From an uncultured bacterium (GTDB taxonomy: Bacteria > Myxococcota_A > Bradymonadia > UBA7976 > VGTA01), in NCBI GenBank assembly GCA_943788935.1, contig CALSSE010000017.1, positions 544,001-608,000 on the forward strand: a stretch of DNA of 64,000 bases, given 5' to 3'. The position numbers and the translations under genes were made by a program. Below are positions 48,750 to 62,042 of this stretch, piece by piece (the first letter of the stretch is position 1; each line of letters starts with the position of its first letter). The notes beneath the pieces were generated by a model. That model searched no databases and was not told the DNA's origin. It was given only the letters and a program-made list of their open reading frames with translations.

Positions 48750-50294
48750 GTGACAACGCATCCTACCCCTCATCCACTCCCGACGGCTTACAAGCGTCGG
48801 CAACCTGAGCGCAGCACCCTTCATCAAGCGATCACTCAGCATCTCCCACACCTTCATTCACGACTCGATCATGAGGGGAGAGCGCTCCCACCCTTTGTAG
48901 AGCTCACCTTTGAGCGTTATCTCAGCTGTGGTCAACTCCAAGGTGGTTTTGTTCGTTTATATTGCTCAGAGTGTAAACATAATCGACTCATCGCTTTTTC
49001 ATGTAAGCGTCGAGGACTCTGCCCGAGCTGTGCGGGTCGAGTGATGACCCAACGGGCGATGCGTCAACGAGAGGCGGTGATCCCCGCAGTGCGCAATCGT
49101 CAATGGGTCTTAACCTTCCCAAGACCTCTTCACACCTATCTCGCCTATTTTCCTCATGCGCTCACTGATGCGCTTGATCTGTTTATCGAGACATTGCGTT
49201 ATCATTACCAGCGTCGCTGCTTACCCGCAGCCCCCTCTCCACCAGAGTCCTTTGATGTCGATTACATAAACGCTTATTATCGCCCTCGATACCCTCACGA
49301 TATAGGAGCGCTCACTAGCGTTCAGCGTCACACAGATGCGCTCAGCCTTTATCCGCACTTTCATACTCTCACCACAGATGGCCTCTTCGTCGCCCGCTCC
49401 TCTCCTCAAGCCGCTCAGTCGACTCTGCGACCGAGAGCGCCTGTAGATGACGCTGTATTTATCACTGCGGAGCCTCTCTCTTCTGAAGATCTTCAAGAGA
49501 TCCTAGTGCTCTACCAGCGCCGCCTCACGCGTCGATTCATCCGCCGAGGCTATCTACGTCCAAACGTCGATGGTCTACCCGCAGCCGAGCAGACCTTTAG
49601 CCTCTTTTGGGGCGCTGAGCCTCCCTCTGAAGAGGAGCAACAGCTCCTAAAGTGCTACGCGGCGAGCGCTCAGCTACGTCATGCTTTTGGCCCACGCGCA
49701 GGCCACCCCCTCGAGCTAGACCTCGCCGATGAGACGAGTGATCGCCCAAGTTCACATGAGCTCTGCGTCAGCTATGCAGGTTTTAATGTACACGCCAACA
49801 CAGTCATCGAGGCTGAGGACCGCGATCGACTTGAGCAAATGTGTCGATATATCCAACGACCTGTGATCGCCAAAGATCGATTAAAGAAACTCGAAGACGG
49901 CAGATTTTACTATGCGTTCAAGCGGCAGTGGAAGAGCGGCGCTAGAGGCATATTTTTTGAAGGCCCAGACCTCCTAGAGCGCTTAGCGGCCCTCATCCCT
50001 CCTCCCCGTAAACACCAAACAAGATACCACGGCGTCTATGCTCCACACTCTCGATTTCAGAGGGCGATCAAACACATGACGACTCGCTTCGAACAAGCAT
50101 TAAGCCATCAAGCCCGTCAACGTCGCCATGTGTACTGGGTTCTCTGGGCAGAGCTCTTAAAGCGCACCTTCAGAGAAGACGTTGAGCGCTGTCCCCACTG
50201 CACCTCAACTCTCCAACGCATCTCACTCATCACTACGCCCGAGGCGATCATCGCGCTCATCGCATACGATGAATCAGCGCGTGGTCCCCCCTAA
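48750..50294 (+). mobile_element. IS91-family transposase (Y2/HUH type)
   Basis: The 514-residue protein has an N-terminal zinc-binding domain (CSECKHNRLIAFSCKRRGLCPSC) and then the catalytic HUH region YPHFHTLTTDGLF, followed by a C-terminal cluster CPHC. This fits IS91/IS801-type rolling-circle transposases. The start is GTG at 48,750. The ends of the element could not be fixed from sequence; such elements have no inverted repeats and can mobilise neighbouring DNA, so the nuclease and CRISPR region to the right may have arrived with it. Confidence 0.85.
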
Positions 50295-50415
50295 CTAGTC
50301 AGAGGAGATGAGGCTGATTTAGGTGTGCCGAACGAAGTGTCCGTTACTGGTCAAGTGGGGGAAAGGGGGCGCTGTATCTTGCGCTTATAGAGAGCTTCGA
50401 CGAGTTAGCAGAGTT

Positions 50416-50441
50416 GTCTAGTATTTGAACACTTACTAGAC
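50416..50441. repeat. Perfect inverted repeat before the nuclease gene
   Basis: GTCTAGTA (416-423) and TACTAGAC (434-441) pair fully around a 10-base loop, three bases before the TTG start of the nuclease. It could be an operator, an mRNA hairpin that hides the start, or the terminus of the IS91-type element. Confidence 0.6.
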
Positions 50442-50444
50442 TCG

Positions 50445-52766
50445 TTGAGGGAAAAGTGTTTAATTTTTCAACTCGGTTATTTTACCTATCCCTACCGACT
50501 AGATTTCGTTGGGGTCGCACCGCTAAAAGAACATGATGAGCCCTTCTTTGTGCCCAAGTCGGATGAGCCTGTCACTCACACCTTTCATCTACCCCTTGGT
50601 TTTGATGGCTTCGGTGTACGTGAAGATGACAGTCTAGATTATGGGGCTGTGAAAGGGCTCTTCTTTTCATTGTATCGTGGATTCAATCGCTTTGTGAAAG
50701 ATCAACCAAAGCGCGCTGCAGCCCGATCAAAGTCACAACAAGATTTTGAAGATCAGAGGCGCCAAGAGGGTGGACTTGGCTCATCCGTGACTTCAGCTGA
50801 CAGCGCTGCTAGGTATAGCGGGTTGACAGAGATTACTGAGGTCTTACTCGCCCTTCCCGAGCTTAATATTACGCGATTAGAGCGTCCCCAAGCCCCTGTT
50901 GACCAAGTCGATTACGGTCAGATTCACAAATACCTCGATCAGTGCATCTACATGGAGGACCACAGCGCTTACATCGACTGGATGAACCTCCCACGACGCG
51001 AGCTGCGATCAGGTTACTCTGACTTGCTTGGGATGTACTGTTTTATCCTCGATTCCATCTTGGTTGAACTGAATGATGATGTCACCTTGCCAGGCCCAGA
51101 GAGTGCACTCCTTGAATCATTGGTGATCGCCCGAAGGCCTGAGATCGCGAGGGTCGCAGATCAGTTTCGTGAACGTCACCTCTCGGCCGCGAGTGATCTC
51201 TTCAGTGAAGAGGGCAGCGAACACGTCACTCTCATCCTCGAAGAGCTCCTCGCTGAGATCGATCAAGTGACCGCTTTTAGAGACCGCGACTTTCATACCC
51301 TCTTCGAGGCGTGTGAGCGCTTCCTCTATGGCGCACTCGATTCAAATGTCGAAGGGAGCTCTTGGGGACTCGATAAATTCTCTCTCTTCTGGGAAGACCT
51401 CTGTCACACGTGGTTCTTCTCTCAGCCTAACACAGAGGTATTGTATGCCGACTGTGACCTCCCAAAGGCACCTCATTTGATCAGCGCCCTCTCGGGAGGA
51501 GAGGCGATTCGTGAGCGAATAGGGAATCTCCGACTAGGCAAATCGGATCATCCCGACAAGAGCGGATGGGTCTATGTGGGAGATAAAAGATATGACTCTC
51601 ATCATTTAAGTAGAGAGGGTCATTACAGAGACAGCTTGAAGTGGAATACAAATCACTCACAAGCAAAAGTGAAGAGCACTCCATTGAGTCACGACATACA
51701 GGAGCTCCTCTGCGTGAGCTACCGAAGTCAAAGTGGTTATTTTGTCGATAAAGGGCTCATCAGTAAGTGCAATGGAGAAAACACTCATCGCTCACTGATC
51801 AAACGACTACTGAGGCCTGATTTAATCAACGTATATGATGATCAAACGATTATATGGGATTATAAATATGCCGACCTCTCTTTCTTTAACCGTCCAAGCG
51901 ATAAGCTCAAAAAAGATATTTCAAAGAGCTTAGCTTATGAGGCATCACTTGGCGGTTGGGAAGACCTAAAACTTGGTCAGAACCGCTTCTTGATCCCCTG
52001 TTCAAATGGATCTTCAAAGACCGTCAAGATAGATAGATGGGCTCATCTGAGTCATGGCATCTCAGTATGGACCCTAGACCTATGTGAGGCGATTAACAGG
52101 TACGTGAATCATGAGGTTCATGAATGCGATCGAGCATCCTTTCTCACTGAGAGGCTCAAAGCGATGAAGCCCGAGAGCAGTCATCGATTCAGCTTGAGGA
52201 CAATAGATGACTTAGTTCACTTGGAAGGTCGAGAGCTTCCTTCAACGATTGTCAACCATCAACCGATGTTGACCGTAAAGGGCCTTGAAGAGCTCAATCG
52301 AGTACACAGACCGATTCAAGAATATCTTGGGGAGCTTCTTCAAGAGACAAATGTAGATCCTGCACGATATATTGCCTATCACCGTGGTGTAGACCTACAA
52401 CTTGACCTTAAAGCGATGTCTTTTCATGGTGGGCAAGAGGAGCTGAGAGATTGGCTCGAGCTTGAGGTGTTTTCAGCTTTGGGCGCGAGAGATAAGGATG
52501 GTAAACTAGACATCAAACCCGCCCTCATGGTTACTCTTGATGACGATTGTGCGCTATTAAACTGCCAAATACCTCTAAAACATCAATTCGGTGGACGGAT
52601 ACACCGTGTGGACGCCCTTATGTACGGACCGTCCCAGCTAGCTTCACGCATGGCGAGCTTTATTGTGAGAGTTCACCCTTTCTGGATTTTCGACTGTATT
52701 AAGGATAGAGCTAAAACCAATCGCCCCAATGTTAGTCAGCAGAGAGTAGACCCCAAAAAAAGATAG
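50445..52766 (+). CDS. PD-(D/E)XK nuclease family protein next to the CRISPR array
   Basis: The 773-residue frame starts at TTG 50445 with no clear ribosome site. Residues 457-459 RPD and 471-475 WDYKY, with Asp472-x-Lys474, give the PD...DxK pair of restriction-type nucleases; FWEDLC at 315-320 supplies an upstream Trp-Glu typical of the LlaJI / DUF2357 restriction group, and after DxK comes DISKSLAYEASL, the usual Q/S-x3-Y helix. The N-terminal ~300 and C-terminal ~200 residues match nothing I recognise. The homology is inferred from motifs. An McrB-type GTPase partner is absent here. The stop is followed by 30-bp repeats and then by the array, so a shared defence role is possible. Confidence 0.6.
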   Translation: MREKCLIFQLGYFTYPYRLDFVGVAPLKEHDEPFFVPKSDEPVTHTFHLPLGFDGFGVREDDSLDYGAVKGLFFSLYRGFNRFVKDQPKRAAARSKSQQDFEDQRRQEGGLGSSVTSADSAARYSGLTEITEVLLALPELNITRLERPQAPVDQVDYGQIHKYLDQCIYMEDHSAYIDWMNLPRRELRSGYSDLLGMYCFILDSILVELNDDVTLPGPESALLESLVIARRPEIARVADQFRERHLSAASDLFSEEGSEHVTLILEELLAEIDQVTAFRDRDFHTLFEACERFLYGALDSNVEGSSWGLDKFSLFWEDLCHTWFFSQPNTEVLYADCDLPKAPHLISALSGGEAIRERIGNLRLGKSDHPDKSGWVYVGDKRYDSHHLSREGHYRDSLKWNTNHSQAKVKSTPLSHDIQELLCVSYRSQSGYFVDKGLISKCNGENTHRSLIKRLLRPDLINVYDDQTIIWDYKYADLSFFNRPSDKLKKDISKSLAYEASLGGWEDLKLGQNRFLIPCSNGSSKTVKIDRWAHLSHGISVWTLDLCEAINRYVNHEVHECDRASFLTERLKAMKPESSHRFSLRTIDDLVHLEGRELPSTIVNHQPMLTVKGLEELNRVHRPIQEYLGELLQETNVDPARYIAYHRGVDLQLDLKAMSFHGGQEELRDWLELEVFSALGARDKDGKLDIKPALMVTLDDDCALLNCQIPLKHQFGGRIHRVDALMYGPSQLASRMASFIVRVHPFWIFDCIKDRAKTNRPNVSQQRVDPKKR

Positions 52767-52797: not shown

Positions 52798-52905
52798 CCT
52801 CTTGAGAATTCCTCTGAGACCTTTTGATTTTGAGCCTAATGAGAATTCCTCTGAGACCTTTTGAGAGAGAGAATTCCTCTTGAGAATTCCTCTGAGACCT
52901 TTTGA
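52798..52905. repeat. Three 30-bp repeats on the left of the CRISPR array
   Basis: CCTCTTGAGAATTCCTCTGA plus ten bases occurs identically at 52798-52827 and 52876-52905, with a variant at 52835-52864. All contain the 16-mer CTCTGAGACCTTTTGA. The same 16-mer occurs in tandem at 54622-54653 on the other side of the array. Confidence 0.85.
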
Positions 52906-52917
52906 AGTGTCCGATTA

Positions 52918-54228
52918 GTCGCAATAGCCTAAGAGCGGCTAACCCTCGCGAGAAGCAAGTTCTCTGCTATAAGTGGGTCGACATGGGGTCGCAATAGCCT
53001 AAGAGCGGCTAACCCTCGCGAGCTTGTCCTATTGCGTGTAATGGAAGAAAGCACGTCATATCGTCGCAATAGCCTAAGAGCGGCTAACCCTCGCGAGGTA
53101 AAAGCACCGCCAAGACATTAATTATACTTCAGTGTCGCAATAGCCTAAGAGCGGCTAACCCTCGCGAGCATCAACTTTATGGCCGCGCTCGCTAAGCAGC
53201 AGATGGGTCGCAATAGCCTAAGAGCGGCTAACCCTCGCGAGCAGCCCGTGAGTACGGATCTATTCCACCCGTCACCCAAGAGTCGCAATAGCCTAAGAGC
53301 GGCTAACCCTCGCGAGTGAAATTGATACGGAAGACGTGGTGTGAGAGTCGCAATAGCCTAAGAGCGGCTAACCCTCGCGAGAAAGTTCATGAAAAAGCAA
53401 TTCGAACACTTAAAGAAGTCGCAATAGCCTAAGAGCGGCTAACCCTCGCGAGGAGGACTTAATCCAGCTCAATGAGCGTTTGAATGGTCGCAATAGCCTA
53501 AGAGCGGCTAACCCTCGCGAGCGTGTCTCGGAAAAGGCTCCAAGTACGGAGCCTGATAAAGTCGCAATAGCCTAAGAGCGGCTAACCCTCGCGAGATCTT
53601 GGTCTCGATGATCCGAAAGGATTTCTCGAAGGTCGCAATAGCCTAAGAGCGGCTAACCCTCGCGAGATGAGCTTAAGCAGATCGTGGACGGTATGCCCCA
53701 AGCGTCGCAATAGCCTAAGAGCGGCTAACCCTCGCGAGACAACGAGCGCCTGGAGAACTTTTTAGTTCGCCAAAAAAGTCGCAATAGCCTAAGAGCGGCT
53801 AACCCTCGCGAGCCAATAAACTGGACTACGTAGGCCTAGGCCGTCGGGTCGCAATAGCCTAAGAGCGGCTAACCCTCGCGAGTATGGATTTAAATAATTT
53901 ATTTGATTTGACAAGTCGCAATAGCCTAAGAGCGGCTAACCCTCGCGAGGGGCACTGGCGAGTCGAGGGTCCAACACCGCAAGTCGCAATAGCCTAAGAG
54001 CGGCTAACCCTCGCGAGTGGTACCAGCCATAAAAGCCAGTACCTCATCTCGTCGCAATAGCCTAAGAGCGGCTAACCCTCGCGAGAATTCGCCAAAACTA
54101 TGGCGCTTTTGTTGGGTTTGGGGCGTCGCAATAGCCTAAGAGCGGCTAACCCTCGCGAGACGTCGGAGAGGTAGAGGGTCCCCTCTTCCCAGGGTCGCAA
54201 TAGCCTAAGAGCGGCTAACCCTCGCGAG
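52918..54228 (-). CRISPR. CRISPR array, 19 identical 35-nt repeats
   Basis: On the plus strand each repeat begins GTCGCAATAGCC and ends CCCTCGCGAG. Starts are 52918, 52988, 53063, 53134, 53207, 53282, 53347, 53418, 53487, 53561, 53632, 53704, 53778, 53848, 53915, 53983, 54051, 54125 and 54194. No repeat shows a mismatch. Spacers range from 30 to 40 nt. The minus orientation is favoured: it gives a stem TAGCC-GCTCTTA-GGCTA near the 3' end and an 8-nt tag ATTGCGAC, as expected for Cas6-processed type I or III repeats, and puts an AT-rich leader-like stretch (54,229-54,560) at the upstream end. The wide range of spacer lengths favours type III. No cas genes are visible. Confidence 0.97.
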
Positions 54229-54593: not shown

Positions 54594-54653
54594 ATGTCAC
54601 GCGCAGCCAAGCTGAGACTTCCTCTGAGACCTTTTGACTCTGAGACCTTTTGA
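54594..54653 (+). CDS. Possible 19-residue ORF overlapping the flanking repeats
   Basis: AGAGGAG lies 8 bases before the ATG at 54594. The frame codes MSRAAKLRLPLRPFDSETF. The left flank of the array can be read LLRIPLRPFD and SETF in the same frame relation to its repeats, so the two flanks may descend from one short coding unit. Expression is unproven. Confidence 0.3.
   Translation: MSRAAKLRLPLRPFDSETF
54622..54653. repeat. Tandem pair of the 16-mer that also flanks the array on the left
   Basis: CTCTGAGACCTTTTGA occurs at 54622-54637 and 54638-54653, head to tail. It also occurs at 52812, 52849 and 52890 on the left of the array. Confidence 0.9.
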
Positions 54654-54753: not shown

Positions 54754-54972
54754 ATGTCGACACTCACTACCCGCGCCGTCTTTATGACATCAGTTGGCAT
54801 CGCTAAATATCATAAGACGACATACAGCGCGCTGAACCAAGATGAGCCCACATTAAGTGGTGAATTTTTCCCTCTCATCAGGCTTGAACAGCTTAAGTCG
54901 AGTGGGGTTAAGATTGATAAGGTGCTCTTATTGTTAACACCTGAAGCTCCCTCCTGCTCAAAACTTGGATGA
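54754..54972 (+). pseudogene. N-terminal fragment of a TM1812/Csx2-like CARF protein
   Basis: The opening VFMTSVGIAKYHKTTY, then SGEFFPLIRLEQL and KIDKVLLLLTPEA, follow the first strand, loop and second strand of the CRISPR-associated TM1812/Csx2 (TIGR02221-type) family, whose N-terminal CARF domain senses cyclic oligoadenylate made by type III effectors. After Glu64-Ala65 (about 54,946) the similarity stops; PSCSKLG and the stop codon come from the foreign sequence that begins there. Full members run to several hundred residues, so effector and most of the sensor are lost. The fragment is plus-strand and divergent from the array. It is the only cas-type gene trace in the window. The match is by pattern, not by search. 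Confidence 0.6.
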
Positions 54973-56531
54973 AGTTGCATGTTTGCTGTTACCATTGATA
55001 CCCAGCTATTTACTTCGGACTTTGCTATATCTAAAGACTCCATCGCAGACTCTAGGTTTTTAACACTTAACTCATTTCTAGGATTAAGGCTATTAAACTT
55101 GGCTAAACGTTTTTGAACCTTTGCTATCTCTTGTTCTAGACGTAACTCTTTTGGAGATTTACGTATTATATTTGGGTCCATTAGCTTTTGAGAGTCTTTT
55201 ATAATATCATCAATTATAATCTTACATCTTCCACAAACACGACCAGCTTGAGAATAGTCTGCAAGTTCTTTAAATGAAGCAATTCCAGTTTTCGTTACTA
55301 TATCTACTAAGTCTTGATGATATATATGCTCACAGCTACAGATGAGCCTACCTTTTTGGCCAATTAATCTATTCTCATAGAGATAGTTGATATCTACTTT
55401 CATCTCTTTTTTTATAAGTGTTTCTATATAGCTGACATCTACATTTGAATTTAGCCCTATAAATCTTGTAAGTTGTTCACCATCTACAAAATACTCATCA
55501 ATTCTATTGTCTTTTTTTGAGCTAATAATAATCTTTTCGTATTTATCTGTAAATTTTGGGGAGCTCACTTCTGTGAGTTCAAATTCACCAACTTTTAGCA
55601 TATCTATACTAACTTCTAAGTCGAACTTTTTAACTCTTTTTTGTAATATATGGGAGATTGCAGCATCAGCTTGTGTAGTACATTCTCGTACATGACCAGC
55701 CATATATCCAAAAGCTTCAACTTCTGCACACTCACCAACAGCATAGATATTTTCATCTTCACTTTGCATATAAAGATTTGTTAAAATTCCTTTGTTCGAC
55801 TTTAGTGTTTCTCTAAAGTATTCGATATTTGGTTTTATCCCAACTCCAAAAATCAGAAAAGGATTTTCTATCTTTAATTTTTTAGTCTCAAGAAGTGTAA
55901 TTTCATTATTTTCAATTTGTTTATCCACTATCTCATCTTCGTAGGATATTCTAATCTTGCTAGCACTTGTGTAACACTTTTCTATAATCTTTATAGACTC
56001 TATCCCTAGATGCCTGTTATAAAGTTGTTTACTTCTTACTAAAAGAGTGATGTTTTTAACATCTGGCATCTCATTGAGAGTTTCAAGAATCTCAAGAGAG
56101 ATTGGTCCACTTCCAACAACAACAACTTCTCGATTTTCAATCCCTTTTTTAATAATTTCACAATCATCTGCTGAACGAAATACAGAAGCATTTGAGATAT
56201 CATCAATGTCAAAAAGAGAAATGGGGATGGAACCAGTAGCTATAATGAGCTTGTCATAAGAAAACATGTCCATATCAGAATAGACGCGTTGGTGCACTCT
56301 ATCTATTGTTTTTATTTTTTGATTGAGTGAGAGTTGTACAGTAGGATCAAGTACTAAAGAAATTTTTCCAGTATCCTCAAAATCATCAAGTAAACGGCAA
56401 AGATGGATTCTATCATAAGGAATGTGTGACTCATCACTTAAGACTATTACATCAAGTGATGCATCTTGCTTTTTAAGATTGTTTGCTAAATATACAGCAG
56501 CTATTCCGCCACCAATAATTACGACTCTCAT
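54945..56531 (-). CDS. NirB-like FAD/NAD(P)H oxidoreductase, C-terminally truncated
   Basis: The N-terminus VVIIGGGIAAVYLANNL binds FAD, VVVVGSGPISLEILE binds NAD(P)H, and CSCEHIYHQDLVD with GRVCGRCK is a BFD-like [2Fe-2S] domain as in assimilatory nitrite reductase large subunits (NirB/NasB). The codons are AT-rich, unlike the left part of the window. Similarity to a natural protein is plausible to about MQLHPSFE, after which the frame runs into the reversed CARF gene and ends at 54,810; that last stretch is chimeric. It lies 67 bases after the RND gene. An enzyme fed by NAD(P)H may sit with metal efflux by chance or as a detoxification partner. Confidence 0.7.
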
Positions 56532-56597
56532 AAGGAACCTTTTATAACATACATATTTGTATATTATAAAAGTATTTACATTAAAAGCATATTTAAA

Positions 56598-59500
56598 TTA
56601 TTTTACTTTATGATGTTTGTCATAAAAAAGTAGATATGTTGATGGTAGAATCAGTAAGGTTAATAAGGTTGAGCTAATAATTCCACCTGTAATTACGACT
56701 GATAAAGGATACTGTATCTCACTTCCAACACCCGATGCATAAAGCAGGGGAAGAATTCCAAAAAGTGTTGTAAATGCTGTCATGAGTACAGGACGAAGTC
56801 TTAGCAAGGCTGCGTCTTTTAGTAAAGTATTTAGTTTTACATGTGGAAACTTTTCTCTGAGTTCTTCTATAAAACTAACGAGTACAATCCCGTTTAAAAT
56901 CGAAATCGCAAATATTGCTAAGAAACCTATAATCGCAGATACTGAAAGATAGATGCCACTAAAAACTAAAGCAATAATTCCACCAATAAGACCAAAAGGA
57001 ACATTAAGTAAGATAAGTAGAGCCTTGCTTATAGAATTAAAAGCAGTATATAAAAGTAAGACTATAAAAAAGATAGTTATTGGGATAATTATCATTAGTT
57101 TCTGAGTAGCTTCTTTCATGTTTTTAAAGTCACCTGCCCAACCGATGTAATATCCATCAGGAATTTTTACTTCTGCTTCTATAATTGCATTGGCTTCTTC
57201 AACAAATGATGCAACATCCCGACCATCAACATCCATAGATAAAACCATATAGCGACTAAGATTTTCTCTTTTTATAAATGATGGACCTTGCACTACTTGA
57301 ATGTCACAGATTTGCTCCAAAGTAACAAGAGCACCATTTTGTGCACGCATCGTTACTGCTTTAACCGTTTCTATATCTTCTTTTGCATCTTTTATTTTTG
57401 CAACGATTCCAAACCTTCTGATGCCTTCTATCTTTTCGCTTACAGCTTCTTCACCAAGACCATTACGAATCACATCCATAACTTCTTCTACGCTGATGCC
57501 GAAACGTGCGAGTGAGAGATAGTTTGGCTCTATCTTGATTTGTGCCTGACCGAGTTGTGTTTCAACTTCCATCTCATGAAGTCCATCGATATCTTTTAAA
57601 ACCGCTTGGATATCTTTAGAGATTGCATCAAGTGTTTTTTGATCATCTCCATAAATCTTAACGGCGAGTTCAGCTTTAACACCTTCGAGTAACTCTTCGA
57701 TTCTCATAGCAATTGGCTGTGTTGGTACAAAGTTTATAAACTCAAAATGCTTCTTTAAATCTTGATTCATTTTTTCTGTGAGTTTTGGTAAGTCTTCTAT
57801 CCCTGGTTTAAGTGTGAGTAAAACTTCCATATAGTTAGCCTGCGCTGTTTCACCATTTTCACTTCTACCAATCATAGACAAGACGGATGCAACTTCTTTA
57901 GGATAGTTTTTGAGTATATACTTTTCAATCTCTCCAGCAGTTTGTGTTGAGTGTTCTAATCCTGTTCCGGGAATTGCAACAACTCTGTACATGATTGACT
58001 CTTCATTTAACTCCGGCATAAATTCTCGCCCTTGAAGACTTAAAATATACGCTAAAACTATAAAGACAAGAGTCACAGATGCTAAGACTAACTTTGCATG
58101 ATGCAGTGCAAAAACTAAGAAAGGTGTATAGAGTTTTTTAATCCCTTTCATCACAATGTTTTCTTTTGATTTAGATGGTTTTAAAAGTAAAAAAGTAAGT
58201 ACGGGTACTAAAACTAAAGCTACTAAAAGTGAACCAAGCATCACAAAGACGATATTTAATGCCATAGGTGAATAAAGCTTACCAGCTAATCCATCAAGTG
58301 AAAGTAAGGGGATAAATACAGCTGCTATAATTAAAACAGCAAAGGTTACAGGAGTAGCCACTTCTTTAGCAGCTTGGGATACCACTTGAAGTTTTGGAGC
58401 ATCTGGCATGTCATGGAGTTTTCTAAAGGAGTTTTCCACTATAACAATAGTTCCATCGACTATCATCCCAACTGCGATGGCTAAACCACTTAAACTCATA
58501 AGGTTTACACTTACAGCATAATAATCCATCAATAAAAAAGCCACTAAAAGTGATAATGGAAGAGAGATAATTACAATAAATGCTGAGCGTAATTCAAAAA
58601 GAAATAAAAATAGTACTATTGCAACTAAGATTACTCCTGAGATTAAAGCAGTAGTCATTGTGCTTACCGCTTTATGTGTAATCTCTGTTCTATCATAAAT
58701 AGTACGGATTACTACACCCTCAGGAAGTGCTGATGCAACAGTTTTAAGTTTCTCTTTGAGTCTCTCAACAACCTTCGCTGCATTTGTAGCACTACGTTGT
58801 AAAACCATACCCATAACAGCTTCACTACCATCTATACTAATGGAGCCAAACCTAGGAGCTGAACCAGTCTCTACAGTAGCTACATCGCCAATAGTTACAG
58901 AATGTCCATCAAGAGATTTTACAACAGTATTTCGGATATCATCAAGTGACTTATATAAGCCCGCTCCACGAATCAAATACTGTTCACGATTAAACTCTAA
59001 ATACTGTCCACCTGCGGCTTGATTACTTTTTTGTAATGCATCAACTATATCGCTATAGGTTACATCAATATTTTGTAGTTTTTTTGTGTCTATAAGAACG
59101 TTGTATTGTTTTTCATAACCACCCCAACCTACTACTTCTTCAACACCACTTACACTTTTAAATAGTGGTGTAACAACATAATCTTGCATCTCACGAATCT
59201 CACGTAATGAGTACGAAGAAGTAGTATCTTTAATCTCATACCAAAAAACTTGTCCTAAACCCGTTGTATTTGGCCCAAGCATAGGTTTACCCCACCCACT
59301 TGGAATATCTACAGAACTTAATCTTTCAGATACTAGTTGGCGCAGAAAATATATGTCCATATTGTCTTCAAAGAATATAGAAACATACGAAAGTCCAAAA
59401 AATGAGTTTGACATTATGAGTTTAACCCCAGCCATTCCCGAGAGTGCTGATTCGATTGGATAAGTCAAAAGCTTTTCAATATCTTCTGCTGAATTACCTG

Positions 59501-59660
59501 GAGATTCTGTATATATCACGACCTGTTTTGGTGTGATATCTGGAAATGCATCAACAGGAATCTCTTTGTAAGCCTTAAAGCCAAAGGCAGAAATAACTAC
59601 AAATAATGTGAGAACTAAGAACTTGTATTTTAATGCTGTATCTATTATAAAATTTAGCAT
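56598..59660 (-). CDS. Heavy-metal RND efflux transporter (CusA/CzcA type)
   Basis: A 1020-residue RND pump. SVNLMSLSGLAIAVGMIVDGTIVIVENSFRKL holds the HME-RND relay residues in helix 4, and the usual second cluster follows (IIGFLAIFAISILNGIVLVSF). Periplasmic segments EVVGWGGYEKQYNV and GGQYLEFNREQYLIRG are CusA/CzcA-like. It drives export of monovalent or divalent metal ions by proton antiport. It follows the adaptor by one base in a TolC-adaptor-pump operon; codon use is AT-rich, as in Campylobacterota. Confidence 0.9.
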   Translation of the reverse strand: MLNFIIDTALKYKFLVLTLFVVISAFGFKAYKEIPVDAFPDITPKQVVIYTESPGNSAEDIEKLLTYPIESALSGMAGVKLIMSNSFFGLSYVSIFFEDNMDIYFLRQLVSERLSSVDIPSGWGKPMLGPNTTGLGQVFWYEIKDTTSSYSLREIREMQDYVVTPLFKSVSGVEEVVGWGGYEKQYNVLIDTKKLQNIDVTYSDIVDALQKSNQAAGGQYLEFNREQYLIRGAGLYKSLDDIRNTVVKSLDGHSVTIGDVATVETGSAPRFGSISIDGSEAVMGMVLQRSATNAAKVVERLKEKLKTVASALPEGVVIRTIYDRTEITHKAVSTMTTALISGVILVAIVLFLFLFELRSAFIVIISLPLSLLVAFLLMDYYAVSVNLMSLSGLAIAVGMIVDGTIVIVENSFRKLHDMPDAPKLQVVSQAAKEVATPVTFAVLIIAAVFIPLLSLDGLAGKLYSPMALNIVFVMLGSLLVALVLVPVLTFLLLKPSKSKENIVMKGIKKLYTPFLVFALHHAKLVLASVTLVFIVLAYILSLQGREFMPELNEESIMYRVVAIPGTGLEHSTQTAGEIEKYILKNYPKEVASVLSMIGRSENGETAQANYMEVLLTLKPGIEDLPKLTEKMNQDLKKHFEFINFVPTQPIAMRIEELLEGVKAELAVKIYGDDQKTLDAISKDIQAVLKDIDGLHEMEVETQLGQAQIKIEPNYLSLARFGISVEEVMDVIRNGLGEEAVSEKIEGIRRFGIVAKIKDAKEDIETVKAVTMRAQNGALVTLEQICDIQVVQGPSFIKRENLSRYMVLSMDVDGRDVASFVEEANAIIEAEVKIPDGYYIGWAGDFKNMKEATQKLMIIIPITIFFIVLLLYTAFNSISKALLILLNVPFGLIGGIIALVFSGIYLSVSAIIGFLAIFAISILNGIVLVSFIEELREKFPHVKLNTLLKDAALLRLRPVLMTAFTTLFGILPLLYASGVGSEIQYPLSVVITGGIISSTLLTLLILPSTYLLFYDKHHKVK

Positions 59661-59661
59661 C

Positions 59662-60885
59662 TTAGTGTCCGTGTCCGCCGAGTGCAGATTTGAAAAGCAT
59701 AGATTTTACATAGTAACTTTTCCCACTTATATACTCTTCACCTTCATGGATACCTTCAACTCCAACATACTCATCATCTTCTGTTATGATATTTACTACA
59801 CGAACCTCGTAAGCTGCTTCTTCTTCCTCTTCATCATGTCCAGTGTGATCGTCATCTGCATCAGCACCCAACTCTTTATGTTCATCATGAGCATCTTCTT
59901 CATGGCCGTGACCTTCATGTTCGTCACGAACAGGTTCTTCATCATGCCCATGCCCTTCATGTTCATCTGCTTCTTCATGTTTTTCTTCTTCATGTTTTTC
60001 TTCTTTATGCAAGAAAACAACCCACTCGTTGTTAAAAAATGAAAGTGCTGATTTTTTAATCGCTACATACTTTTTCGTATCGCTAAAGTAAAGCTTAGAT
60101 GCAATATAAGAGTTGATATAAAGGTTTTCTGTCTCTTCATCAATACTTGAGAGTAAAACTATTCTTTGTGTTTTTTCATCAACTTGAGGAAGGATTTGAG
60201 TTACATGAGAAACAATTGTTTTTCCATTGAGATTAATAGTAGTTTTTTGACCAATTTTTGCCTTTGAAGCATACTTTAGCGGTAAAAATGACTTAAGATA
60301 AAATGCCTGCTCTTTAACTAAAGATATGATTGGAGTATCCTCTTGAACACTTGAATGTTCTGCTTGTAATATCTTAGATACTACTCCATCACTATGAGCA
60401 TAAAGTACAAAGTGAGAACTTGCTTCTTTTAGCTTATTTGTATTTATCCCTAAAGTATTAAGCTGAGATTTGAGTGCTGTCAAAGTTGAGAGAAGCTCAT
60501 TCTTTTGAATACTTTGCTGATTTACTTCTTGAAGTGATATCATTCCTTTATCATAAAGGTTTTGCAATGCTTTAGAGTTCTTTTCCAATGCTAAAAGTTG
60601 TTCTTTTTGAGCTATATAATTTGCTGTCATTTGTGATATTAGCATCGACTTAATAAGGACAATTTTTTGACCTTCTTTAATCTTTTGTCCAACTTTTACA
60701 TAGTACTTCTCAATATGTCCACTTACTAAAGACATGACAGACTGTGAAGAGTTTGATAACTGAATTATTTGAGAATTGAGCTCAACTGATGCACCAAACT
60801 CTTTTAGTATAGCTTTATCTTCTGGTATATCTAAGGCCATAAGCGATGTGTAGAACAATACTCCTACGAGAAAAAAGATTTTCAT
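59662..60885 (-). CDS. Heavy-metal RND adaptor (CusB/CzcB type) with His-rich insert
   Basis: A 407-residue periplasmic adaptor with a signal peptide, lipoyl-like (VSGHIEKYYVKVGQKIKEGQ) and helical hairpin segments. Near residues 290-365 a His/Asp/Glu-rich insert (runs like HEGHGHDEE) is likely to bind metal ions before transfer to the pump. The gene overlaps or abuts both neighbours. Confidence 0.85.
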   Translation of the reverse strand: MKIFFLVGVLFYTSLMALDIPEDKAILKEFGASVELNSQIIQLSNSSQSVMSLVSGHIEKYYVKVGQKIKEGQKIVLIKSMLISQMTANYIAQKEQLLALEKNSKALQNLYDKGMISLQEVNQQSIQKNELLSTLTALKSQLNTLGINTNKLKEASSHFVLYAHSDGVVSKILQAEHSSVQEDTPIISLVKEQAFYLKSFLPLKYASKAKIGQKTTINLNGKTIVSHVTQILPQVDEKTQRIVLLSSIDEETENLYINSYIASKLYFSDTKKYVAIKKSALSFFNNEWVVFLHKEEKHEEEKHEEADEHEGHGHDEEPVRDEHEGHGHEEDAHDEHKELGADADDDHTGHDEEEEEAAYEVRVVNIITEDDEYVGVEGIHEGEEYISGKSYYVKSMLFKSALGGHGH

Positions 60886-62042
60886 TATAAACTCCCTGCT
60901 AAATAATTAGACATGATAATATTTTGATTTAATTTTGTTTGTATAGAGATGAGAGCAGATTTTGTTTTAATAAGCTTTGATTTTATATCTTGAAGTTCAA
61001 GTAAATTAACCTTTGCTATTTTATAACTCTCCTCAAACATCCCTAATACTTCTTCTAGTTTTGTTATATGGTTTTGACTTCTTGATTTAAGACTTTGTAG
61101 TAAAACTCTTTGTTTGTCTAACTTTAATTTCTCTAAAGTGATTTTTGAGTTTTCTTTCTCGATTAAAAGGTTCATCTTATCTGCTTCTAATCTTGCTATT
61201 GTTCTCTCTTGAGACTTTGTGTTGAAGATAGCCAGAGGAATATTGAGACCAAGACTTATAACATCTTCTGTAGGTTCATTATCATATGCAGCATAAAGTT
61301 CAAGAGATTCTATGGCATGAGATTCTACATCTGCTGATGCAAGTGCTTTAGCTTTTTGTGTTTGTATAAAATGAATATGTGCATTTGTATTTTTATCTGC
61401 ATCGAGAGCAAAGTCATGTTTAAGAGATATCTCTATCTCACTACTTTTTCCAGCTAGTTCTAAAAGTGTAAAATAACTCTCTAGTGTTTCATACTTTAGA
61501 GCTTCTTTAGCAATCTCTAAGCTCTCCAAATCAAGTCCTGCTTCATACAATAGACCGCGAGAAATCATTCCATCGTCGTATTTTTGTTGTGAGATATCGT
61601 AGATAACTTTTGCAAGTACTATCTCTTCCTCACTCAAAGCTTCAAGAAGTTTTTTCTCTACATAGTTTGTATACGCTAAAGAGATCTCTTTTATCAATTC
61701 TGCCTTTGTAAGTGAGTATGCAGCCTTGGCTTGTGTACTTAGAGAACTAGAGAGTTTTTCTTTATCACTGCCAACACCTGGTAGTCTTAAGGCTTGGGTA
61801 TATTCTAATGCATAGCCATTTGAACTCGCTGTATCTTCTGGTTTAAACCTTGAATATCTAAGACCCAAAGTCGGATTATCGTATAAAAGGAGTGCATCTC
61901 CTTCTTCTTTTGCTTGATTTATACCTAAGTGCGTTGACTTTAAGTATGGACTATTTTTTAGTGCATCGTTTAAAAAATCATTAAAATTCTGTGCAAATAA
62001 TGATGATGTTATTAAAACAATGACTGATAATATTTTTATCAT
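60885..62042 (-). CDS. TolC/CusC-type outer-membrane efflux protein
   Basis: A 385-residue OEP-family protein with a signal peptide (KILSVIVLITSSLFAQ), then ALKNSPYLKSTHLGINQAKEE and long coiled-coil helices. It is the first gene of the operon on the minus strand and overlaps the adaptor by one base. It is the exit duct of the metal pump. Confidence 0.85.
   Translation of the reverse strand: MIKILSVIVLITSSLFAQNFNDFLNDALKNSPYLKSTHLGINQAKEEGDALLLYDNPTLGLRYSRFKPEDTASSNGYALEYTQALRLPGVGSDKEKLSSSLSTQAKAAYSLTKAELIKEISLAYTNYVEKKLLEALSEEEIVLAKVIYDISQQKYDDGMISRGLLYEAGLDLESLEIAKEALKYETLESYFTLLELAGKSSEIEISLKHDFALDADKNTNAHIHFIQTQKAKALASADVESHAIESLELYAAYDNEPTEDVISLGLNIPLAIFNTKSQERTIARLEADKMNLLIEKENSKITLEKLKLDKQRVLLQSLKSRSQNHITKLEEVLGMFEESYKIAKVNLLELQDIKSKLIKTKSALISIQTKLNQNIIMSNYLAGSL

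What the first reader, a model, noticed from the sequence alone, without database searches (positions are those of the whole stretch)
50445..52766. Uncharacterised 773-codon PD-(D/E)XK nuclease adjoining the array
RPD at 457-459 and DxK at 472-474 with an upstream Trp-Glu place it near LlaJI/DUF2357 restriction nucleases, but no McrB-like partner is present and most of the protein is unknown. It lies between an IS91-type transposase and the array. It may be a stand-alone defence nuclease or a CRISPR accessory; it is the best candidate here for an undescribed system.
Basis: partly seen in the sequence, partly recalled or inferred. Interest (0 to 1): 0.65.

Follow-up and report, generated by a model that had tools for sequence, protein, structure and literature searches.

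The report
Truncated LlaJI-type restriction nuclease, partner missing
This gene is the surviving half of a three-part, McrBC/LlaJI-like DNA-cutting defence system whose motor gene is missing, with a jumping gene inserted into its start, so its place beside a CRISPR array is a neighbourhood accident; its intact relatives in cyanobacteria and Bacteroidota form a little-described variant of a known defence family.

Summary
The 773-codon frame is real. The RPD (457-459) and DYK (472-474) motifs and an upstream W316-E317 are present; D472, K474, W316 and E317 are invariant across 16 aligned family members. It is a distant member of the LlaJI nuclease family (Pfam RE_LlaJI just above cut-off; profile comparison E=4e-9).

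First, codons 1-17 are not native: they are the end of the neighbouring IS91-type element, whose same end recurs at seven other places in this genome. Homology to the family starts at that junction. Second, in all 20 relatives found (cyanobacteria, Bacteroidota, one Rickettsiales MAG) the nuclease lies directly downstream of a McrB-like GTPase gene and, wherever the contig continues (18 of 18), just upstream of or fused to a small third protein. The window protein carries that third protein as its C-terminal domain. Its GTPase partner is absent from the assembled genome.

So this is a decapitated, probably inactive remnant of a three-component GTP-dependent restriction system, not a stand-alone nuclease. 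The CRISPR array belongs to a type III/RT-Cas1 locus on another contig. What may be new is the subfamily: AAA-only GTPase, nuclease and conserved third protein, without a conserved methyltransferase.

The parts
48750..50294 (+). IS91/ISCR-type transposase, 514 aa
   Evidence: Pfam Y2_Tnp 2.8e-22 and Zn_Tnp_IS91 9.6e-17
50327..50493 (+). end of the IS91-type element; its last ~49 nt are read as codons 1-17 of the ORF
   Evidence: 93% identical over 168 bp to a copy on contig C9; the terminal ~34-75 nt recur at 6 further places in the genome, all diverging at the same point
50494..52115 (+). nuclease moiety (aa ~18-557), LlaJI R2-like, lacking roughly its first 13-20 native codons
   Evidence: profile of the family matches from window 50490 (profile position 16) to 52112, E=9e-154 (the profile includes this sequence)
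50505..50603 (+). N-terminal FVGV...LPLGF motif (aa 21-53), shared with R2.LlaJI (ERFVGIK...VVYFPVGY)
51390..51398 (+). W316-E317-D318 motif
   Evidence: W and E invariant in the 16-sequence alignment; aligned with the WE of R2.LlaJI by profile comparison
51813..51866 (+). PD-(D/E)XK catalytic motif: R457 P458 D459 ... D472 Y473 K474
51924..51941 (+). KSLAYE (aa 494-499), equivalent of the KQLxYE motif after the catalytic lysine
   Evidence: K494, L496, Y498 and E499 invariant
52254..52565 (+). C-terminal domain homologous to the separate third gene of relatives (fusion)
   Evidence: HMM hit E=3.8e-5 at aa 604-707; hhalign probability 89%, E=2.3e-6; native fusions in L032 and L033
52918..54228 (-). 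19-repeat CRISPR array (35-nt repeat), detached from its cas genes; not part of the nuclease system

Best explanation
The gene is a 5'-truncated, orphaned remnant of a three-component, GTP-dependent restriction system related to LlaJI/McrBC. In intact relatives an operon encodes (1) a McrB-type AAA+ GTPase with essentially no N-terminal DNA-binding domain, (2) this nuclease, with the LlaJI R2-type N-terminal region and a C-terminal PD-(D/E)XK domain, and (3) a small third protein, here fused to the nuclease's C-terminus. Inferred mechanism: the GTPase forms a ring that is stimulated by the nuclease subunit and moves along DNA, the nuclease subunit cuts invading DNA, and the third subunit or domain helps recognise the target. 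In this genome an IS91-type element ends inside the first codons of the nuclease and the GTPase gene is gone, so the protein is probably inactive in restriction. Shown here: the family relation, the operon in relatives, the fusion, the IS junction and the absence of the partner. Inferred: the biochemistry, the role of the third subunit, and loss of function.
For: Family: Pfam RE_LlaJI at aa 449-523; profile-profile E=4e-9, probability 96%, with R2.LlaJI-type nucleases including pNP40; shared FVGI, WE and DxK motifs. Operon: McrB-like GTPase immediately upstream in 20/20 relatives, third gene downstream or fused in 18/18 with enough contig. The GTPase carries GSPGTGKS and MNTSD (NxxD) and matches solved McrB structures at E=6e-26. 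Fusion. Truncation: the IS91 end recurs at 7 other places and diverges at the same point; the family profile starts at the junction. Partner absent: the only McrB-like gene found in the genome belongs to another, intact LlaJI pair. The locus follows atp-sfsA, where the same-genus genome carries unrelated genes. In LlaJI both subunits were absolutely required in vivo (PMC1459862).
Against: The remaining 756 codons are open without stop or frameshift, which could mean it is still expressed and selected. The window protein is a long branch (4.37 changes per site), so its details may differ from the relatives. AlphaFold models were weak (pLDDT 47 and 64) and Foldseek found nothing significant, so the fold itself is not confirmed. 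The assembly is a ~91% complete genome in 31 contigs, so a misjoin at the IS or an unassembled partner cannot be fully excluded.
Confidence: 0.8

Rival explanations
1. A functional stand-alone defence nuclease that has dispensed with a GTPase partner.
For: Long open frame with catalytic residues intact; no partner nearby; possible start at TTG 50445 inside the IS end or GTG 50550.
Against: All 20 relatives keep the GTPase next door; the orphan state coincides with an IS end inside the gene's first codons; R2.LlaJI needed R1.LlaJI for activity in vivo (PMC1459862).
Confidence: 0.08
2. The orphan nuclease still works by borrowing the GTPase of the second, intact LlaJI-type pair in the same genome (C13:21249-22769).
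For: That pair exists and its GTPase is the only McrB-like gene found.
Against: The C13 GTPase is only 27-41% identical to a cognate-family GTPase, in two stretches, and has its own, distantly related nuclease; cross-pairing between such diverged subunits is unproven.
Confidence: 0.07
3. A CRISPR accessory nuclease that belongs with the adjacent array.
For: It directly adjoins a 19-repeat array.
Against: The same repeat's main array and its cas10/RAMP and RT-Cas1 genes are on another contig without this gene; no CRISPR-like array in the fetched flanks of the 13 relatives examined; the leader-like flank shared by the two arrays is on the right, so the array is most likely read towards the nuclease on the opposite strand.
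Confidence: 0.02

Closest known systems
LlaJI restriction cassette (R1/R2.LlaJI, Lactococcus lactis pNP40)
   Same: McrB-like GTPase gene followed by a PD-(D/E)XK nuclease with FVGI, WE and DxK motifs; profile-level homology of the nucleases
   Different: LlaJI's GTPase is 585 aa with an N-terminal DNA-binding half, it has two m5C methyltransferases and no third restriction gene; here the GTPase is AAA-only in relatives and missing in the window, no methyltransferase is conserved, and a third protein is present
LlaI / BsuMI three-ORF restriction cassettes
   Same: Short McrB-like proteins (337 and 343 aa) in three-ORF cassettes (PMC1459862); the Lactococcus locus L074, probably LlaI (inferred from the 337-aa GTPase and plasmid context), has the same order: GTPase, nuclease, third gene
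   Different: The third gene of L074 shows no detectable homology to the third protein here and its nuclease only marginal similarity around the WE motif; LlaI and BsuMI are linked to methyltransferases
McrBC (type IV) and its CoCoNuT relatives
   Same: NxxD-type GTPase with solved McrB structures as best match; predicted GTPase plus PD-(D/E)XK nuclease logic
   Different: No Pfam match to the McrC DUF2357 domain; no N-terminal specificity domain on most of the GTPases; extra small third protein

Membership tests
LlaJI-type nuclease (RE_LlaJI, R2 subunit) | PD...D/ExK catalytic motif with the family's conserved flanks | tested here: met
   RE_LlaJI 24.2 bits over cut-off 23.6; motif and WE conserved; A6 vs A7 E=4e-9
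LlaJI-type restriction system | adjacent McrB-like GTPase (R1) | tested here: not met
   absent in the window and from the genome except in another pair; present in 20/20 relatives
LlaJI-type restriction system | N-terminal DNA-binding half on the GTPase | tested here: not met
   in most relatives the Walker A motif starts about 10-20 residues from the N-terminus; L026, L032 and L033 have a ~75-aa extension
LlaJI-type restriction system | linked m5C methyltransferases | tested here: not met
   none recognised next to the window gene; among 66 near neighbours of relatives only one D12 and one N6 methylase are listed
LlaI/BsuMI three-ORF cassette | AAA-only GTPase of ~340 aa in a three-gene cassette | tested here: inconclusive
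   met in relatives: GTPase 344-439 aa plus nuclease plus third gene; not met for the window itself, which has lost the GTPase
LlaI/BsuMI three-ORF cassette | homologous third gene | tested here: not met
   hhalign of A4 against the L074 third gene: probability 0.1%, E=0.7; BsuMI not compared
McrBC | McrC-type DUF2357 domain in the nuclease subunit | tested here: inconclusive
   no Pfam hit; the weak models gave no Foldseek match
McrBC | GTP-dependent cleavage of modified DNA | not testable with these tools
   needs biochemistry
CRISPR accessory nuclease | recurrent linkage to arrays, cas or CARF genes | tested here: not met
   no CRISPR-like array in the flanks of 13 relatives; cas operon on another contig

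The most novel reading that the evidence does not exclude
The intact relatives are an undescribed branch of GTP-dependent restriction systems without a methyltransferase, in which an AAA-only McrB-type motor and a LlaJI-type nuclease get their target recognition from a dedicated third subunit (free or fused to the nuclease, sometimes with an extra C-terminal domain), and the window holds a deep, fused, IS-decapitated member.
Probability: 0.4. Interest if true: 0.55.

Novelty: new variant of a known kind. Interest (0 to 1): 0.35.

Why it matters
It replaces a 'lone nuclease by a CRISPR array' reading with a concrete system: three genes conserved together across cyanobacteria and Bacteroidota, mostly lacking the specificity domain that defines target choice in McrB and R1.LlaJI. 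That makes the third protein a testable candidate for the specificity subunit. The window copy itself shows how an orphaned remnant with intact catalytic motifs can look like a new stand-alone system.

Tried and rejected
Stand-alone nuclease and CRISPR-accessory readings (see rivals). Structure route: AlphaFold of the window protein (pLDDT 47) and of the Anabaena relative (pLDDT 64), Foldseek on both against the PDB: no significant match, uninformative rather than negative. A profile of the nuclease against PDB sequences found only a spurious hit at E=0.17. Single-sequence scan of genome contigs, phages, and an alignment scan of viral contigs: none. No relative in 379 genomes sampled from the phylum, which suggests the gene was acquired from elsewhere. 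Homology of the third protein to the third gene of the LlaI-like cassette: none found. The RPD motif aligns only among the cyanobacterial-type members; in Bacteroidota members a PD motif lies ~100 residues before DxK, so whether it is the same catalytic Asp is unsettled.

Full report
Observation. ORF 50445-52766 exists as described, with RPD at 457-459, DYK at 472-474 and WED at 316-318. Pfam places aa 449-523 in RE_LlaJI at 24.2 bits, just above the curated cut-off of 23.6. No PADLOC or NCBIfam model matches.

The start is not native. The first ~49 nt of the ORF recur at seven other places in the same genome. On one contig the match runs back over 168 bp at 93% identity. In all eight places the sequence ends with nearly the same block (CAACT[CT]GGTTATTTTACCTA...) and then diverges. 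At least one other copy has an IS91-like transposase in the same orientation in front of it. This is the end of the IS91-type element whose transposase lies at 48750-50294. A profile of the family matches the genome from C17:594490, window 50490, at profile position 16, so homology starts at the IS junction. Relatives have more residues before the FVGI motif; the window has three native ones. I estimate that 13-20 codons are lost. The remaining frame is open.

The relatives. tblastn of plasmids found three relatives (Nostoc NIES-3756, Geminocystis NIES-3709, Hymenobacter canadensis). An alignment-based scan of 84,980 species genomes found 17 more: cyanobacteria, Bacteroidota and one small Rickettsiales MAG contig. 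HMMs of the three genes were run on all ORFs of these loci. In 20 of 20 the gene immediately upstream is one family of McrB-like proteins. In 18 of 18 where the contig extends far enough, a third small protein follows directly (155-372 aa) or is fused. L032 (720 aa) and L033 (731 aa) are native nuclease-third-protein fusions. The window protein has the same fused layout: HMM E=3.8e-5 at aa 604-707, profile comparison probability 89%, E=2.3e-6. L032 and L033 are close to each other and the window is a very long branch, so the window fusion may have arisen independently, but its placement is unsure.

The upstream partner. Its alignment shows Walker A (GxPGxGKS), Walker B (DEINRGN; DELNRGN in one) and MNTSD, the NxxD signature of McrB GTPases. 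Its best matches among solved structures are an archaeal McrB GTPase subunit (6ut3, E=6e-26) and E. coli McrB (6hz4, E=2e-14). Unlike McrB and R1.LlaJI, most members begin close to the Walker A motif and so have no N-terminal DNA-binding domain. In the window's own genome the only match is on C13:21552-22340, which belongs to an intact two-gene LlaJI pair at C13:19795-22769. The cognate partner is missing from the assembly.

Family relation of the nuclease. Profile against profile, the family aligns with R2.LlaJI of pNP40 and other LlaJI nucleases at probability 96%, E=4e-9, over the FVGI region and the WE motif. R2.LlaJI reads ERFVGIK...VVYFPVGY and FEYVWEK, with DAK as its DxK. Comparisons with single LlaJI sequences were marginal, as expected at this distance.

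Neighbourhood. Flanks of 13 relatives held no CRISPR-like array (one repeat set in L033 had irregular spacing) and mostly housekeeping genes. Some sit near other defence genes: a type I restriction enzyme beside the Calothrix operon, helicase and dpd-type genes on the Nostoc plasmid, DruA on the Hymenobacter plasmid. Methyltransferases are not conserved: one D12 and one N6 methylase are listed among 66 neighbours. In the same-genus genome G001 the atp operon and sfsA are syntenic and the order breaks right after sfsA, so the window's island is a variable, IS-rich insertion.

The array. The 35-nt repeat occurs 76 times: 19 in the window and 57 on C19. The C19 array is preceded by a cas10/RAMP operon and followed by a reverse-transcriptase-Cas1 fusion. 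The right-hand flanks of the two arrays share leader-like blocks, the left-hand ones less so, so the array is most likely read on the minus strand from a leader on its right, towards the nuclease. Nothing ties the nuclease to it.

Function. For LlaJI both subunits were absolutely required in vivo and R1 was the specificity subunit (PMC1459862). LlaI and BsuMI have short McrB-like proteins in three-ORF cassettes (same paper). McrC stimulates the McrB ring and carries the nuclease (PMC7680126; PMC11090510). By analogy the intact systems are GTP-driven nucleases, with the third protein as the candidate specificity or adaptor subunit; this is inference. The window copy lacks its motor and its first codons and is most likely inactive. 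My paper searches returned no description of this three-gene branch, but the library covers open-licence papers only, and I read only passages of the papers; the McrBC census of PMC11090510 used RE_LlaJI as a search alias, so these loci may lie unnamed in its data.

Noticed in passing
52918-54228 and G000 contig C19:33624-37413: One 35-nt CRISPR repeat in two arrays (19 and 57 copies); the C19 locus is type III-like with cas10, RAMP genes and an RT-Cas1 fusion, so the window array is a detached second array, possibly fed by RNA-derived spacer acquisition.
   Followed up: partly
52798-52905 and 54608-54653: The motif CTCTGAGACCTTTTGA occurs five times in the window, three copies just left of the array and two ~400 nt to its right (0.11 expected), and is otherwise nearly absent from the genome (two one-mismatch copies).
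   Followed up: partly
54810-62000: Low-G+C (about 31-37%) island with a NAD(P)H-dependent reductase and an RND-type efflux gene set in a ~51% G+C surrounding; absent at this place in the same-genus genome.
   Followed up: no
G000 contig C13:19795-22769: Intact two-gene LlaJI-type pair (506-aa McrB-like GTPase with N-terminal extension, 484-aa nuclease).
   Followed up: partly
L035 11548-12639, L039 7681-8799, L012 13599-14684, L038 12160-12597: In several Bacteroidota members the third protein is longer (about 345-370 aa); L012 carries a C-terminal domain with an LTWSTTDDLDLHVFTPSGEI motif that has no Pfam match, and in L038 a similar sequence appears as a separate frame.
   Followed up: no
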